Below are positions 1-47,663 of a DNA stretch of 64,000 bases, piece after piece. This DNA comes from Marixanthomonas ophiurae (GTDB lineage Bacteria; Bacteroidota; Bacteroidia; Flavobacteriales; Flavobacteriaceae). The position numbers and the translations under genes are program-made. The stretch spans positions 1-64,000 of the forward strand of contig NZ_QVID01000002.1 of assembly GCF_003413745.1 (NCBI RefSeq), given 5' to 3'. The first letter of the stretch is position 1; every line of letters begins with the position of its first letter. Below the pieces are notes generated by a model. It was given only the letters and a program-made list of their open reading frames with translations, was not told the origin of the DNA and did not search any database.

Positions 1-80
1 TCTTACCATTCCGAACAGAGTAGTTAAGCCCGTTTGCGCCGATGGTACTACACCGTGGGAGAGTAGGTCGCCGCCTTCTT
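1..80 (+). rRNA. rrf: 5S ribosomal RNA, 3' part
   Basis: The first 80 bases match the conserved 3' portion of bacterial 5S rRNA: the loop region reading CCGAACAGAGTAGTTAAGCC, followed by the GTGGGAGAGTAGGTCGCCGCC-type ending. The 5' third lies outside the window. It is followed at once by a strong hairpin terminator, so this is the end of an rRNA operon transcribed on the plus strand. The exact 3' end could differ by a few bases. Confidence 0.93.
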
Positions 81-41828: not shown

Positions 41829-41843
41829 GTTAGGCACAGTTAT
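41829..41843. repeat. inverted repeat framing the YobI-like gene, downstream arm
   Basis: Reads GTTAGGCACAGTTAT on the plus strand; 13 of its 15 bases are complementary to the arm at 45542-45556. It contains the stop codon of the YobI-like gene at its inner end. Confidence 0.75.
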
Positions 41844-44800
41844 TTTCTTTTATGATTAACTCTTAAACCAAATATTCCAACAGAAAAACTTGAAATGTAA
41901 TCTTTTCGTTTCAAATTTGTCAATAGTTCTCTGTTGTCAGGATTGTCTTTAATTTTTGCCTTTTTATTTTTATTTGTAATTTTTTCATAATTACTAGCTA
42001 AGTTAATTAAGAATTTTTCTATGAAAGTTTCGTCAACGCTAAAAAGATTCTTGTTGAATAATTTAATTCTATTTACAATCGATACACTTTGGTCTATGAT
42101 TAAAGCTTTGAAAAGTAACTCATTTACACGAAATGAACTGTCATTTAATATAAGTTGACTTATTGACTTCAAATTTTCGGATTTTGATAAAATAGTATCA
42201 TTAGAACAAGATTCTAAAAACTTAAGTTTTTCTATATTGTTTAATTTTTTTGATTTTAAAATTAGTTCTACATCATTTGCATCTAAAATTAGTTCCTCAA
42301 TTTTTTCAATAAATTTAGCTTTGTGCTTTTCTAATAATTTAATATTTAACTTTTCATAGTTTTCCTTTAAGCTTTCAAAACTTTTAATCGTTGGACTAAT
42401 TACTCTATTATTTATTAATGAATGAACTTTTTCTTCATCAAGATTTGCAATGTCTAAGTCGCTATACCAGAAAGGTATTGAATTTGTAATTAAATCAAAT
42501 GACTCATTATTAATTTTGTTTGATTGCATTAATGCTTTGCAGAATACACCAAAAATGTTTTCATCATTAAATTTAGTTGCCATTTTTACTTTTGCTAATT
42601 CGTTCGCGTTTTCAATATTATTAATAAAGCCAATAGATGATTCTAATATTTTATTTTCGGATTCTTTGAAAAAGAACAATAAGTTTTCCCATTTAGGTTC
42701 TATCTTATTATTTTCGATAATATATGGCAACAAATTAGCTTCCTCAATAATTGAAATATCAGATATTTTTGTTGCTACTTTTTTAATGACTTCTTTTTTT
42801 AGTTTTAAACTTAAATCAGAGTGGTTTAATAGTTCTAAATACGATTTTTGTTCCTCATTAATATTCGTATCAAGCTTTAAGTAAATATTCGTTATGTAGT
42901 CATTTATGTAGTCTTCTATGTAGTTAATAAGGCTATTCGAATTTGAGTTTTTAATTGAAGAATAATTAGAATTATCAAAGCTTACTTGTTCGAATTCACC
43001 ATATTTTTTTATAATTTCACTAACCATTTTTTCGTTTATCTCATAATGATTATTCTCGTAAATAAACTCTAAAATGTTCTCTGGGGAATTCTTAAAGTCT
43101 AAGTCAATAAATTTTAGTTCTAAATCAGAGATGATATTTATTAGTTTATCATTGTTAGATGTGATGTTTAAAATTTCAGAATCTTTTGTTAGATAATTTT
43201 TGAGATTAGATTGTTTTTCTATTTTAATAATAGATTCAATTTCTGCATATTCTATGATGTATTTTAATATAGTATTTAATTGTTCATCAGAAAACGCAAC
43301 ATCATTCACATAATATTCCCAAATACCAATCCAATACTCGCATAGCGTTTTAATAAATAGATTTAAATTCTCTGTTATATCAACAAAGCCGTTTATAAAT
43401 AGAGTAGAAGTAGAGGATTCATCTTTTAACTTTGTAAAAACATAGTCTAAAGGAACCTTATTATTTCTATGGTTTTTAAGTAAGAAGTCTAACAAGTCAT
43501 AATTCAAGATAAATTCAGAGTTAAAATCAATTGGACTTATTTTTGGAATTACTTTGTCAATTTTTGAAAGTTTATAGTCAAATTCTAATTTTTGTTTATT
43601 TCTTACATTGATAATGAATTTATGATCATTTCTTGTAATACTACCTTCGTGAAATAAAGAAATGTAATCAATATAATCTTCCGAGATATATCCATTTCTA
43701 ATTATAGTTGTAATGAAATCTGCATCTAAATTTTCATTTATATTTAAATCAATTTTTTCATTTGATTGTAATAATTCAGAGATTTTTAAATTTCTAATCT
43801 TAATTTTTTGCCTCTCCAGTTCTTGTATTTCTTTTCTTGTAGAATTTGATTTAATTGATTTAAAATCAATAATCTCTTGTTCCTTAACATTATAAGATTT
43901 TTTCGAATCAACCTTTTTTTCAATTTCAGAAAATAAAATTTCTACTTTTTTAATTGGATAATCAGTTCTATTGTAACTTCTATTATGGAAAGATGATTTA
44001 TAAAATAAATCATTACTTTTTAAGTATTCAAAGTTTTCATCTTTTAATAAATCATTAAGTGTAATAGGTTCTTTGTTAATGATAAAATTATTAAAGTTGT
44101 CTAATGTTTCCATAACTCGAATGATATATAATTGTCGAAGTTCATTTGTGTTTTTAAAATTAATTAAATCCAGGTTTTTAATTTCATCTTTTAAAGTAGT
44201 TATATCTTTTTCTATTCGTTTTATTTCTTGATTTATATATTTTGATTTTGAGTTTAGAATACTGTATAAACTACCTTCATTTTTGCTTAATGAAACAAAG
44301 TCATTCGGGTATTTATTTTTATAAGTAATAATTGCGAATAATTTATCTTGATTTAAGGGTGTCTCACCTTGTTTCGTTTTGTATAAATAAAATTCATTAG
44401 TGATATTATGAAGTAAGCGCATATCATCAATAAAAAAAGATATGTCTTCTATAAAAGCATCTGTTAAATCATAAATATATTTTTTCTTTTTTTGTCTTAA
44501 AATTTCACTCGAATTTGATGAATTAATTACTGGAATAACGGGAATTATGAAATCAAAAAATTTAATTCTCTCATTGTCTGAAAACATATCGTCTCTTACA
44601 GCATAAATAAATGTGATATTTTTCTTTTTAGTTTTTTCAGAGTTGTTGAGTAGAAGGTTAATCTCCCTAAGCTTTGTGAAAATTTCGGTTTCTTCAAAAC
44701 GGTCAAGGTCTTCAATGATTACTACATTATAAGGTCTTATTGTAAAGAAATAAAGGATTTCATCTAAGTGATGGTTCAATATAGACTTGTTTATACTTTC

Positions 44801-45526
44801 TCCAATTCCTATTTCAGCATTATGAAACTTAAGTTTATTAATTGTTATAGAACTAATAATTCTAATTGATTTATATGTGATAAAGAATATACCAATTAAA
44901 ATTATTGCTATACTACCATAATGTAAAGCATCACAAGTAAAATCACTTAAAGGATTATCTTTAAAAACACTTTGGATGAGATAAGGGTAAAAATAATTTA
45001 GTAAGGCTATTATAAATATTAAAATACCAAGGGAGGTTAAAAACAATTTTTTAGCACCATAACTTTTAATTTTTTTAAATCTTGAATCAGGTATATTTTT
45101 ATCTTCTTCGTGATAAAAAATTTGTTGTAAAATGCTTGTTTCTATAAGCCGTAAAAGTTCTTCTTTATCTTTTTCAATAAGGTGTCCTTGTTCATTATAT
45201 TTTGGTTTTTCCTCTTTAAATGTTGCTAAAGAAATATTTAGAAATTCTAATTCAGTTCCTTTGTAGTTTTTTTGGAAAGTCTTCAGAATTGTACTTTTAC
45301 CAGAGCCATAAGACCCTGTAAGGGCAATGTTTTTTATATCCTCTTTTTCACGATTTTCAAGTGCCCATTGTAGAGCTTTTGAGTAATGACCTTCTTTGTC
45401 TCCATTAGAAATTGGAGAAAGAGATGAATAATCTAATTCTTCTGTATTTTTTTCAGATAATTTAAAATGTAATTTTTCAATTTTTTTTGAAGCAATTAAT
45501 AAGAAATCAAGTAGTTTTTTTTTCAT
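41840..45526 (-). CDS. YobI-like P-loop NTPase of the KAP type
   Basis: A 1228-residue membrane-anchored NTPase. The N-terminal YSSLSPISNGDKEGHYSKAL and the Walker A GSYGSGKST (about 71-79) match YobI-type NTPases. Two hydrophobic helices (about 160-185 and 205-225) lie between Walker A and Walker B (VVIIEDLDRF, about 265-275), the hallmark arrangement of KAP NTPases. The remaining 900 residues are Lys-, Asn- and Ile-rich, mostly helical, with a coiled-coil stretch near 430-470. KAP NTPases are linked to phage exclusion and plasmid biology in some cases; here defence is an inference. The gene is more AT-rich than its neighbours, and framed by an inverted repeat. ATG at 45526 is chosen over an upstream in-frame start because the 29 extra residues run through the repeat arm. 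Confidence 0.85.
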   Translation of the reverse strand: MKKKLLDFLLIASKKIEKLHFKLSEKNTEELDYSSLSPISNGDKEGHYSKALQWALENREKEDIKNIALTGSYGSGKSTILKTFQKNYKGTELEFLNISLATFKEEKPKYNEQGHLIEKDKEELLRLIETSILQQIFYHEEDKNIPDSRFKKIKSYGAKKLFLTSLGILIFIIALLNYFYPYLIQSVFKDNPLSDFTCDALHYGSIAIILIGIFFITYKSIRIISSITINKLKFHNAEIGIGESINKSILNHHLDEILYFFTIRPYNVVIIEDLDRFEETEIFTKLREINLLLNNSEKTKKKNITFIYAVRDDMFSDNERIKFFDFIIPVIPVINSSNSSEILRQKKKKYIYDLTDAFIEDISFFIDDMRLLHNITNEFYLYKTKQGETPLNQDKLFAIITYKNKYPNDFVSLSKNEGSLYSILNSKSKYINQEIKRIEKDITTLKDEIKNLDLINFKNTNELRQLYIIRVMETLDNFNNFIINKEPITLNDLLKDENFEYLKSNDLFYKSSFHNRSYNRTDYPIKKVEILFSEIEKKVDSKKSYNVKEQEIIDFKSIKSNSTRKEIQELERQKIKIRNLKISELLQSNEKIDLNINENLDADFITTIIRNGYISEDYIDYISLFHEGSITRNDHKFIINVRNKQKLEFDYKLSKIDKVIPKISPIDFNSEFILNYDLLDFLLKNHRNNKVPLDYVFTKLKDESSTSTLFINGFVDITENLNLFIKTLCEYWIGIWEYYVNDVAFSDEQLNTILKYIIEYAEIESIIKIEKQSNLKNYLTKDSEILNITSNNDKLINIISDLELKFIDLDFKNSPENILEFIYENNHYEINEKMVSEIIKKYGEFEQVSFDNSNYSSIKNSNSNSLINYIEDYINDYITNIYLKLDTNINEEQKSYLELLNHSDLSLKLKKEVIKKVATKISDISIIEEANLLPYIIENNKIEPKWENLLFFFKESENKILESSIGFINNIENANELAKVKMATKFNDENIFGVFCKALMQSNKINNESFDLITNSIPFWYSDLDIANLDEEKVHSLINNRVISPTIKSFESLKENYEKLNIKLLEKHKAKFIEKIEELILDANDVELILKSKKLNNIEKLKFLESCSNDTILSKSENLKSISQLILNDSSFRVNELLFKALIIDQSVSIVNRIKLFNKNLFSVDETFIEKFLINLASNYEKITNKNKKAKIKDNPDNRELLTNLKRKDYISSFSVGIFGLRVNHKRK

Positions 45527-45541
45527 AATTGAATTTTTCTC

Positions 45542-45556
45542 ATAATTGTGCCTAAC
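45542..45556. repeat. inverted repeat framing the YobI-like gene, upstream arm
   Basis: Reads ATAATTGTGCCTAAC on the plus strand. It pairs with 41829-41843 and lies 15 nt upstream of the YobI-like ATG. On the gene strand the frame is GTTAGGC...gene...GCCTAAC. Confidence 0.75.
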
Positions 45557-45752
45557 GGCTCCGTATATGAAAAGTAGCGCTGAAAATAAGCTGTTACTTT
45601 TCGGTTGAGCCACAAGCCAGATTTTTACATTTTACTATTTATCTTTTTTATTGGAAATCGTCAAATTTAAAAATTTGGCGACTTTCCAAAAATGCCAAAA
45701 CCATAGTGCTAGCTATGACTTGCGCTATTTTTTATATACATTGTTACCACAC
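45548..45752. repeat. self-complementary spacer, attC-like
   Basis: A 205-nt gene-free spacer with nested inverted repeats. Outer arms CCGTATATGAAAAGTAGCGC (45561-45580) and the segment at 45721-45740 pair over about 17 bases with three mismatches. An inner hairpin at about 45653-45687 pairs GGAAA-TCGTCAAATTT with its near-complement across a short A-rich loop, and a smaller palindrome around TGCTAGC lies near 45710. The ends carry the boundary motifs of the two neighbouring genes. The organisation resembles an integron attC site but is longer, and one end (GTTACCAC) does not fit the GTTRRRY core. Confidence 0.55.
45743..45752. repeat. inverted repeat framing the small secreted protein, downstream arm
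   Basis: Reads GTTACCACAC; it is a perfect complement of the arm at 46405-46414 on the other side of the gene. Confidence 0.7.
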
Positions 45753-45757
45753 GTTTT

Positions 45758-46402
45758 TTACAGTTTTTTCATTTCTCCAAATCCATATGTTCTGTCCGAT
45801 AAATTTGAATAATAGACGTAATTTCCATTTTCGAGAACGTCAATTATTTTTACATCTATTTTTTGTCCAATAAGGTATTCATATTCTGGTTTAGAAACTC
45901 TTAAATAAGTCAGAACGTAATTACAAGGTGAAATCCACTCAATTTCGTAAACCGATTTAGAGTCTTTTGTCTTCTCAATTTGTTTTCTTTTACGTCTTTT
46001 TATTTTCACGTCTTGATATTCAGGATTTATATACCTGTATTTTCCTTTTCCAAAATCAGCAACGCAATCTGTATTGAGCATTTCCATTGACTGATATTTT
46101 GAATTCACGATTGTGAATGGATAGTCAAAACATTTATTACTGTATTTACTTCCTTTTAAAAAATCAATTTCTTTTCGGTAATCTATAATTTGTTGGATTA
46201 CTTCTTTGTTTTTATATGTCGTTCTTTCTGGAATTTCAGTTACAGAAGTTGTTTCTCCGTTTTCTCCAATACAAATTTTCACATATAGATATTCAACAAC
46301 TTCCGCGTCATCAACGAAAAAGTATTGCTGTATTTGAGAATAAGTCAGTGAGGATTGTAAAATCAAAATCAGAAATATAATTTTTCGCATAGTTTTTCTC
46401 AA
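45758..46402 (-). CDS. small secreted protein of unknown function
   Basis: A 214-residue protein with an N-terminal signal peptide (cleavage probably after LTYSQ, about residue 22). The mature part begins with a strand pattern (YLYVKICIGENGETTSVTEIPE) that recalls TonB C-terminal-like domains, followed by charged and basic stretches (KIKRRKRKQIEK near 147). No clear family. It is AT-rich like the YobI-like gene downstream and is framed by its own 10-bp inverted repeat, so it behaves as a separate cassette-like unit. Whether it works with the NTPase is unknown. Confidence 0.7.
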   Translation of the reverse strand: MRKTMRKIIFLILILQSSLTYSQIQQYFFVDDAEVVEYLYVKICIGENGETTSVTEIPERTTYKNKEVIQQIIDYRKEIDFLKGSKYSNKCFDYPFTIVNSKYQSMEMLNTDCVADFGKGKYRYINPEYQDVKIKRRKRKQIEKTKDSKSVYEIEWISPCNYVLTYLRVSKPEYEYLIGQKIDVKIIDVLENGNYVYYSNLSDRTYGFGEMKKL

Positions 46403-46561
46403 ATGTGTGGTAACTTGTTTATATAAACACCTTTTATACTCTTATCAAGCATATTTGGCATGCTATGAGTAGGTTTTGTGCTTTTTATATATTCTTATTT
46501 AATAAATCAAAAAGGGGAGTACCCTTCAAATATACTCAAAAAACCCAAACCATAAAATCAT
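46403..46561. other. gene-free AT-rich spacer with small palindromes
   Basis: After the boundary arm at 46405-46414 comes a 12-bp perfect palindrome (GTTTATATAAAC, 46416-46427) and an interrupted AGCAT/ATGCT pair near 46448. An open reading frame of 60 codons runs through the following repeats, but its product is low-complexity and is not called a gene. Confidence 0.5.
46405..46414. repeat. inverted repeat framing the small secreted protein, upstream arm
   Basis: Reads GTGTGGTAAC, the perfect complement of 45743-45752, 2 nt upstream of the ATG of the small secreted protein. Confidence 0.7.
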
Positions 46562-46610
46562 ACCCTTGTGCCCTGACTCTTGGGTCTTGCTTCTTGTCTC
46601 TTGGTTCTTG
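46562..46610. repeat. degenerate tandem repeat, period 7
   Basis: Seven consecutive 7-nt units. The last five, from 46576, all end in TCTTG with the first two bases free (NNTCTTG); the first two units are ACCCTTG and TGCCCTG. Confidence 0.8.
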
Positions 46611-46629
46611 TCATCCCAAAACACCTCAT

Positions 46630-46677
46630 TTATTAATCATCCGATAACCCAATGTTCCAACAATCTAATTGCCAAAC
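46630..46677. repeat. degenerate tandem repeat, period 8
   Basis: Six consecutive 8-nt units fitting NNNCYAAY or one change from it (for example AACCCAAT and GTTCCAAC). A looser period-8 pattern with units ending in ACC or TAC continues to about 46720 in a different phase. Confidence 0.72.
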
Positions 46678-46740
46678 CCTAGTAACCCACACTACCAAAG
46701 CTACAACAACCCATTAAAACTTTTAATATCCTATAACTAA

Positions 46741-46860
46741 TTGACACCAAATGACGGCGTTTGACGACCCTTAACCAAGTCTGCTATCTGTTGCAGTCGT
46801 ATAATAGTAAATGACGGCCGTTGCATTCATTTGCATTTAGTTGACAACGGTTGCAGACTT
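46741..46860. repeat. degenerate tandem repeat, period 10
   Basis: Twelve 10-nt units starting at 46741. Ten have T at position 2 with a WTGAC, TTGCA or close variant in positions 1-5; positions 6-10 vary freely. Units 5 and 7 are the weakest. Confidence 0.75.
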
Positions 46861-46880
46861 CACCCCAAATTTTAGGGGTT

Positions 46881-46913
46881 TTGTTCGGGCTTCCTTCGGG
46901 GATCCTTCGGGAA
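46881..46913. repeat. degenerate tandem repeat, period 11
   Basis: Three 11-nt units with the pattern NNNTTCGGGNN. It is preceded by a small hairpin (CCCC and GGGG arms, 46863-46878) that ends in T residues. Confidence 0.65.
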
Positions 46914-46998
46914 TGGGTATGGGTTATTTTCCAAAAAACGACGTTTTACGAACAAATCCCGAAGCAAACTAATATAAAGGCAGGAAAACACTCGGCTT
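46914..46998. other. remainder of the gene-free stretch
   Basis: Holds a short palindrome AAAACG-A-CGTTTT (46935-46947) and otherwise nothing recognisable before the M50-like gene ends at 46999. Confidence 0.4.
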
Positions 46999-47547: not shown

Positions 47548-47663
47548 AGAATAAAAATGATCCGCTTGGGGGTTATGATTAAACTAAAGAACAATAATCA
47601 TTAAAATTTCAGAAAAACAATTGAAAAGCGACCCGACAATAACCCGACACTATCCTGACAGGG

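What the first reader, a model, noticed from the sequence alone, without database searches (positions are those of the whole stretch)
46562..46913. Four side-by-side tandem repeats with constant and variable half-units, periods 7, 8, 10 and 11
Within about 350 nt of gene-free DNA there are, in order, NNTCTTG-type repeats (period 7, 46562-46610), NNNCYAAY (period 8, 46630-46677), WTGAC/TTGCA plus five free bases (period 10, 46741-46860) and NNNTTCGGGNN (period 11, 46881-46913). In each array the same positions stay constant while the others vary, which ordinary slippage does not produce: slippage copies whole units. Either a protein array binds with a fixed step, or a process writes variable bases between fixed ones. 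Different periods next to one another argue against a single decayed satellite.
Basis: seen in the sequence. Interest (0 to 1): 0.75.

Follow-up and report, generated by a model that had tools for sequence, protein, structure and literature searches.

The report
Helically phased protein-binding array, orphan copy
A stretch of DNA between two genes carries short motifs repeated once per turn of the double helix, and the same two-part pattern recurs in related bacteria, often beside an uncharacterised gene pair that includes a small DNA-binding protein, so it is probably a docking strip for such a protein and not a random satellite.

Summary
Real, in part. The period-7, -10 and -11 arrays exceed shuffles; the period-8 array does not convincingly. 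The period-10 array (12 decads) and the period-11 array form one composite element, found four times in this genome and with decads in 14 other genera. Whole units come and go, while T-G at two of ten phases stays nearly fixed and other bases drift.

Of 62 distinct period-11 sites, 26 have a period-10 signal (z>3) on the 5' side, 0 of 59 on the 3' side. Loci chosen by protein family show period-11 pairs upstream of one branch of DUF6266 genes in 27 of 36, of the other branch in 0 of 31. The decads go with a small HTH_17 gene beside DUF6266: 13 of 15 loci with decads, 0 of 21 without.

Best reading: the decads are head-to-tail operators, one per helix turn, for that BldC/excisionase-like protein. 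The window holds an orphan copy behind an integron-like platform. Period 7 is a widespread heptad microsatellite lying next to it. Binding is untested, and four well-assembled genomes with decads lack a close HTH match.

The parts
46412..46560 (-). Integron-like platform block (attI-like plus possible cassette promoter); left of it the copies are unrelated
   Evidence: Nine copies align from 46412 on and not to its left; beside a tyrosine recombinase frame in L012 and L026, and by eye in L016 and L020
46527..46534 (-). TATATTTG, resembling a Bacteroidota -7 promoter box, pointing into the cassettes
   Evidence: Sequence; the consensus TAnnTTTG is recalled; inference only
46562..46610 (+). Period-7 TCTTGNN array (five exact TCTTG units at 46578-46610)
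   Evidence: 0 of 2000 shuffles; heptad runs elsewhere
46630..46677 (+). Claimed period-8 array, not established
   Evidence: 66 of 2000 shuffles reach it
46741..46860 (+). Period-10 array, 12 decads of the form NTG[A/C][C/A]NNNNN
   Evidence: 0 of 2000 shuffles; phase-specific conservation; same array 5' of period-11 sites in other genera
46863..46878 (+). CCCCAAATTTTAGGGG linker, terminator-like on the + strand (followed by TTTTG)
   Evidence: Sequence; a similar linker in most copies, not all
46884..46911 (+). Left period-11 arm, three TTCGGG cores
46947..46967 (-). Right, inverted period-11 arm (CGAA cores at 46949 and 46960)
   Evidence: Sequence; inverted arms in other elements

Best explanation
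Shown: 46741-46967 is one composite element (period-10 direct repeats, linker, two opposed period-11 arms) of a family spread over Flavobacteriaceae; its period-11 part lies upstream of most branch-1 DUF6266 genes examined, and orphan copies such as this one lie elsewhere. Shown: loci with the period-10 part also carry a small HTH_17 gene beside DUF6266 in 13 of 15 cases. Inferred: the HTH protein binds the decads head to tail, one protomer per helix turn, contacting T-G-A/C-C/A and leaving the other bases free, as BldC and excisionase-type directionality factors do; the period-11 arms are a second set of sites tied to the DUF6266 branch; at the home locus the array controls DUF6266. Inferred: the window copy can be bound in trans by the HTH protein of G000:C2:630397-630636 and so influences the cassette platform next to it. 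Period 7 is a separate heptad microsatellite.
For: Phase: pairwise identity 0.99 and 0.85 at phases 1-2 against 0.39-0.58 at phases 5-9 and 0 over 13 copies; columns at least 90% conserved: 20 of 24 at phases 1-2, 13 of 96 elsewhere, p 1e-10. Polarity: 26 of 62 distinct sites 5', 0 of 59 3' (one search shows that two of its 64 sites were counted twice). DUF6266 loci chosen by family: 48 core pairs at spacing 11 upstream, 1 at 10, none at 11 downstream in 54 loci, of which 6 came from the motif search; 20 loci from 14 genomes: 13 have spacing-11 pairs upstream, 0 downstream. Decads z>4 upstream of DUF6266 in 12 of 36 branch-1 loci, 0 of 31 branch-2 loci, 0 of 67 downstream. HTH gene in 13 of 15 loci with decads, 0 of 21 without, p 4.5e-8. 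HTH matches of 59.9 bits or more in 12 of 199 genomes, each of which has decads; the next best is 55.8. Pfam HTH_17 over its cut-off in 3 of 3 tested. Within the genus the HTH is in G000, G002, G005 and G006, which have decads; G004, with no period-11 site, has none. BldC and Apl bind direct repeats 9-11 bp apart head to tail (passages of PMC5859096, and PMC7498355).
Against: No binding data. G030, G138 and G172 have decads but no HTH match near that level (G030 none at 1e-6; best 45.8 and 49.9 bits in the others), G001 has decads and only weak matches, and G003 has decads and no match, though it is 55% complete. Eight of the 12 high-scoring genomes supplied the eight rows of the alignment, and the genomes without a period-11 motif or DUF6266 were not scanned for decads, so the genome-level match is partly circular. 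Thresholds were set after seeing the values. Of the 62 sites, 36 have no decads, many of them outside Flavobacteriaceae. Three of the 15 genomes behind the DUF6266/period-11 co-occurrence (G033, G067, G135) have plain period-11 runs and, as far as fetched, only the other DUF6266 branch. The HTH gene of G006 has no array in cis. DUF6266 neighbours 9 of 41 period-11 elements. An automatic consensus did not recover a clear core at the home arrays of G000 and G008. BldC repeats are 9 bp, not 10.
Confidence: 0.58

Rival explanations
1. The decads are operators for another regulator that binds direct repeats about one helix turn apart, such as an OmpR/PhoB-type response regulator; the HTH gene is merely linked.
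For: BldC's authors name response regulators as other binders of direct repeats (passage). G030, G138 and G172 have decads without a close HTH match. Cores differ by genus.
Against: The HTH lies beside DUF6266 in 13 of 15 decad loci and 0 of 21 others. Twelve half-sites in a row is long for a response regulator (recalled).
Confidence: 0.22
2. A non-autonomous mobile or REP-like element: the decads are sub-terminal transposase sites and the period-11 arms fold into a hairpin.
For: Dispersed copies in one genome; inverted arms.
Against: Letters of the two arms outside the cores match no better within an element (0.447, 18 elements) than between elements (0.510, 669 pairs), and the RNA fold is not unusual (z -1.46 and -1.55). 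Copies at matching places in sister species share neighbour genes, and identity within type A is higher than over all types. No empty site was found; only one locus was examined and it is a variable hot spot.
Confidence: 0.1
3. Decayed satellites: all arrays are slippage products with no function.
For: Whole units are gained and lost. Period 7 behaves like this. Plain TTCGGGTTTNN runs occur in G033, G067 and G135 (no inverted arm found) and in G003 (arms not examined).
Against: Decay would erode all phases alike; T-G at a 10-bp step is held. The order decads, linker, TTCGRG arms recurs across genera in one polarity.
Confidence: 0.07
4. Centromere-like (parC/parS) or iteron arrays for segregation or replication.
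For: Plasmid centromere proteins bind 10-bp repeats or heptads in series (passages of PMC5016525).
Against: Low-copy arrays between chromosomal genes; no partition motor among the 10 window proteins and 5 neighbour proteins scanned with Pfam; not searched further.
Confidence: 0.03

Closest known systems
BldC of Streptomyces and its operators (PMC5859096, passages read)
   Same: Small MerR-like winged HTH protein; head-to-tail oligomers on direct repeats of varying number; part of each repeat constant, part free
   Different: BldC repeats are about 9 bp (AATTXXXX(C)); here 10 bp with a TGAC-type core, 12 units here and 8 to 13 by eye in others; the partner is an HTH_17 protein beside DUF6266 in another phylum; binding not shown
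Excisionase / recombination directionality factors such as Apl of phage 186 and lambda Xis (PMC7498355, passages read)
   Same: Six-bp operators in direct repeat, 10-11 bp apart, five to seven in a row; some also regulate transcription; HTH_17 is an excisionase-like family (recalled)
   Different: No recombinase was noticed at the DUF6266/HTH home loci (not searched for systematically); more repeats; no phage relative found for DUF6266 with one close-range query
OmpR/PhoB-type response regulator boxes (recalled)
   Same: Short constant motifs at 10-11 bp spacing
   Different: Usually a few half-sites (recalled); no linked gene of that kind noticed
Heptanucleotide simple sequence repeats (as discussed in PMC4679880, passages read)
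   Same: Fits the period-7 TCTTGNN array: intergenic 7-nt tandem units
   Different: TCTTGNN keeps five bases and varies two, within and between arrays

Membership tests
BldC/RDF-type operator array | Direct repeats about one helix turn apart with a conserved core and free spacer | tested here: met
   Lag 10, 0 of 2000 shuffles; phase conservation
BldC/RDF-type operator array | Cognate small HTH gene near the home array | tested here: met
   13 of 15 home loci; not at the window copy itself, the gene is at G000:C2:630397-630636
BldC/RDF-type operator array | Array present only where the HTH gene is present | tested here: inconclusive
   12 of 16 decad genomes in the 199-genome sample have it; G001, G030, G138, G172 do not at that level
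BldC/RDF-type operator array | Cooperative head-to-tail binding of the protein | not testable with these tools
   Needs purified protein
HTH_17 (PF12728) | Pfam match over gathering score | tested here: met
   31.4, 47.9 and 29.5 bits against 27 in 3 of 3 proteins
Selected hairpin (REP-like or attC-like) | Complementary arms beyond the repeated core | tested here: not met
   Non-core identity 0.447 within elements, 0.510 between elements
Known RNA family | Rfam match over gathering score | tested here: not met
   The only match in the window is 5S rRNA at 1-79
Integron integrase (TIGR02249), for the recombinase beside the attI-like block in L012 | Score over curated cut-off | tested here: not met
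   183.6 bits against 265; NF040815 195.7 against 220

The most novel reading that the evidence does not exclude
A previously unnamed chromosomal nucleoprotein system of Flavobacteriaceae: the HTH_17 protein coats 10-bp arrays, a factor tied to the DUF6266 branch uses the opposed 11-bp arms, both co-evolve with genus-specific cores, and orphan arrays elsewhere in the genome, such as this one behind an integron-like cassette platform, are trans docking sites that switch expression or recombination there.
Probability: 0.3. Interest if true: 0.8.

Novelty: new variant of a known kind. Interest (0 to 1): 0.6.

Why it matters
It gives a lead on DUF6266, a family named in no paper of the held library, and on a natural set of long operator arrays, one site per helix turn, whose cores differ by genus, so that the link between HTH protein and operator can be tested directly. 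It also shows a way to tell constant-and-variable tandem repeats from satellites: conservation by phase.

Tried and rejected
RNA structure: folds of both strands are not unusual and Rfam has no match there. Hairpin selection on the period-11 arms: not supported by the spacer test. Mobile element with an empty site: the type C locus between an AMP-ligase gene and an ssb-like gene holds different genes in each species, so no clean empty site was seen. DUF6266 as a phage protein: no PHROG match for two proteins and no relative in the viral collection with one close-range query. DUF6266 structure: five close sequences, mean pLDDT 57.8, so the fibronectin-III-like Foldseek matches (best E 1.6e-3, none at 1e-3) are only a hint; no PDB sequence match. 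Literature: eight searches showed no description of the element in their listings; the library holds only openly licensed PMC papers.

The reversed-pattern control for period 7 is not clean, because perfect TCTTGGT runs match the reversed pattern too; it is not used as a test.

Limits of the counts. In alignment A1 my coordinates cut L022 and L014 short, so those rows cover 7 decads. The first autocorrelation script stopped at its last item; one search repeats the test on all sites, two of which are double counts. Of 68 DUF6266 loci one (L224) was too short and dropped; five further matches listed were not fetched; L257 and L259 are partial hits. Three of the 20 loci (L244, L247, L252) had already been seen through the motif, and the L124 and L057 loci are the same. 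The 41 elements were picked by eye from the loci. The DUF6266 'branches' are my labels by N-terminal letters (MGKI/MGVI against the rest); no tree was built. One search stopped on an input error and repeats it.

Full report
What was checked. The window stretch 46403-46998 is intergenic. Periods 7, 10 and 11 exceed dinucleotide shuffles (0 of 2000 each); period 8 does not convincingly (66 of 2000; 27 of 500 over the whole stretch, with its best place elsewhere). Tandem Repeats Finder reports the period-7 and period-11 arrays there but not the 8 or 10 ones.

It is a repeated element. A DNA search of 60 genomes found that 46400-46559 and 46687-46981 recur separately. With the pattern search, the genome of the window has four copies of the right-hand part with TTCGGG cores: here, C1:139 kb, C1:982 kb and C2:629 kb; a fifth site, C2:901 kb, has TTCGAG cores and no decads by eye. 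Sister species could be named by matching contig lengths (Marixanthomonas spongiae HN-E44, Zunongwangia sp. ESRF-bin46, UBA3179, UBA3356). Thirteen copies were aligned. Large gaps are whole units: 10 nt gained in one copy, 40 nt and 11 nt lost in another. Letters are shared by descent, so the 'free' bases are not rewritten at random.

Conservation follows the phase. Over the 13 copies pairwise identity by phase is 0.99 (T), 0.85 (G), 0.72, 0.60 and then 0.39-0.58. Columns at least 90% conserved: 20 of 24 at phases 1-2 against 13 of 96 elsewhere, p 1e-10; in the six type A orthologs invariant columns are 37 of 48 at phases 1-4 against 28 of 72 elsewhere, p 4e-5. Two rows were cut short by my input. 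This is what a protein that touches the same few bases once per turn would leave.

It reaches across genera, with one polarity. A pattern from the period-11 part alone, scanned over the species genomes, gave 39 stretches, of which I judge about 19 by eye to have decads or their remnants. A wider pattern matched 17 of 199 Flavobacteriaceae genomes, with two control matches in two genomes. Pooling all sites of both searches, the 130 nt on the 5' side show lag-10 autocorrelation (z>3) in 26 of 64, the 3' side in 0 of 61 (p 1.4e-9). Two elements were counted twice, so the distinct counts are 26 of 62 and 0 of 59. Cores differ by genus: TTGAC, TATGAC, TGACAC, TGAGAC, TTGTCC, TTGTGC; the automatic consensus was unclear at the home arrays of G000 and G008.

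The opposed period-11 arms do not look like a selected hairpin. Outside the cores, arm letters match no better within an element (0.447, 18 elements) than between elements (0.510, 669 pairs). Cores with other letters on an 11-nt lattice (CCATAG/CTATGG by eye; lag 11 z 6.2) lie in front of a DUF6266 gene of G172 (L258).

The element goes with DUF6266. Nine of 41 elements picked by eye have a DUF6266 gene starting next to them. Genomes with the period-11 motif have DUF6266 in 15 of 17, others in 26 of 182, p 4.8e-10; three of the 15 (G033, G067, G135) have plain runs and, as far as fetched, only the other DUF6266 branch. Starting from the protein family instead: in 54 loci, 6 of them from the motif search and one locus present twice, core pairs upstream lie 11 apart 48 times and 10 apart once, and none lie 11 apart downstream. 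In 20 loci from 14 genomes, three of them seen before, 13 have spacing-11 pairs upstream and none downstream. Split by N-terminal letters, the branch with other than MGKI/MGVI starts has the motif in 27 of 36 loci and the MGKI/MGVI branch in 0 of 31; decads (z>4) in 12 of 36 and 0 of 31; one of 68 loci was too short. Thirteen of the 27 are from this genus.

A small HTH gene goes with the decads. In branch-1 loci with decads (z>2.5) a gene of about 80-95 codons lies near DUF6266 in 13 of 15, opposite to it and downstream in 12 and on the same strand upstream in one; in loci without decads a match of 50 bits or more is found in 0 of 21 (p 4.5e-8; cut-offs chosen after the fact; three of the 13 are orthologs within this genus). 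Of the two exceptions, G183 has its HTH about 2.5 kb away, outside the fetched stretch, and L253 of G030 has none. Three of three tested pass the Pfam HTH_17 cut-off. Over 199 genomes an eight-row alignment gives matches of 59.9 bits or more in 12, each with decads (G000, G008, G069, G097, G122, G125, G143, G145, G158, G162, G183, G208); the next is 55.8 bits. Against this: G001, G030, G138 and G172 have decads and no such match; eight of the 12 supplied the rows; genomes without the motif or DUF6266 were not scanned for decads. Within the genus the HTH is in G000, G002, G005 and G006, at most a weak match in G001, and none in G003 (55% complete, has decads) or G004. G006 has the HTH without the MATFEKG-type DUF6266 and still has two, shorter, arrays.

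Mechanism. Passages of two papers describe the mode I infer. BldC, a MerR-like protein of 68 residues, binds direct repeats of about 9 bp head to tail, in varying number (PMC5859096). Apl and other directionality factors bind operators 10-11 bp apart, cooperatively (PMC7498355). The decads look like a longer operator array of that sort, placed between the period-11 arms and the start of DUF6266. A promoter there is inferred from sequence only. Which protein binds which part is inference.

The window copy. It lacks DUF6266 and the HTH gene; a home locus with both is at C2:629647-630636 of the same contig. It lies 3' of an M50-peptidase-like gene (21.7 bits, under the Pfam cut-off of 27.2) and behind a block (46412-46560) that recurs beside a tyrosine recombinase frame in L012 and L026 and, by eye, in L016 and L020, with variable genes on its other side. 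That block looks like an integron attachment site with a promoter into the cassettes, although the recombinase tested (L012) scores below the integron-integrase cut-off. An effect of the orphan array on this platform is a guess.

Period 7. TCTTGNN runs of four units occur in 26 of 149 Flavobacteriaceae genomes, many with perfect units. The matching stretch in UBA3179 has a TCTTG array whose two-letter spacers differ by eye. This fits a heptad microsatellite with a constrained five-base part; its function is open.

Verdict. The locus type around it, DUF6266 and HTH_17 with 10-bp and 11-bp arrays, did not appear in the listings of eight literature searches of a limited library. On checking, the confidence was lowered slightly because G003 is a further decad genome without the HTH, though incomplete.

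Noticed in passing
window 41840-46560; L012, L016, L020, L026: Integron-like platform: a conserved attI-like block with variable genes on one side (here a 214-aa ORF and a YobI-like P-loop NTPase, AT-rich, with an inverted-repeat-looking spacer at 45541-45757) and, in L012 and L026, a tyrosine recombinase frame whose 3' end faces the block; the L012 protein is below the integron-integrase cut-off.
   Followed up: partly
L129-L133: The same attI-like block sits upstream of another DUF6266 gene with a TTCGAG period-11 element in five genomes of the genus.
   Followed up: partly
L023, G003:C49:63115-63252, L168, L183, L190: Plain TTCGGGTTTNN-like period-11 runs, in genomes that also have DUF6266.
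   Followed up: no
L258; L026 3400-3600; L059: By eye, period-11 lattices with a CCATAG/CTATGG core in place of TTCGRG, one of them in front of a divergent DUF6266 gene.
   Followed up: no
window 47631-47660: ACCCGACAATA, 2.7 copies of period 11, between the M50-like gene and the HTH/DUF4870 gene.
   Followed up: no
L071, L083 (G006:C1:72083-72528): Heptad arrays repeated three times inside a tandem unit of about 193 nt, next to a CCAACAAT-like period-8 run.
   Followed up: no
L013, L235-L239: Variable gene hot spot between an AMP-ligase gene and an ssb-like gene, with different cargo in the species of the genus.
   Followed up: partly
L039, L054 (Niastella): Strong lag-11 autocorrelation on the 3' side of the period-11 site (z 6.3 and 7.9).
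   Followed up: no
window 1-79: 5S rRNA match cut off at the window edge.
   Followed up: no
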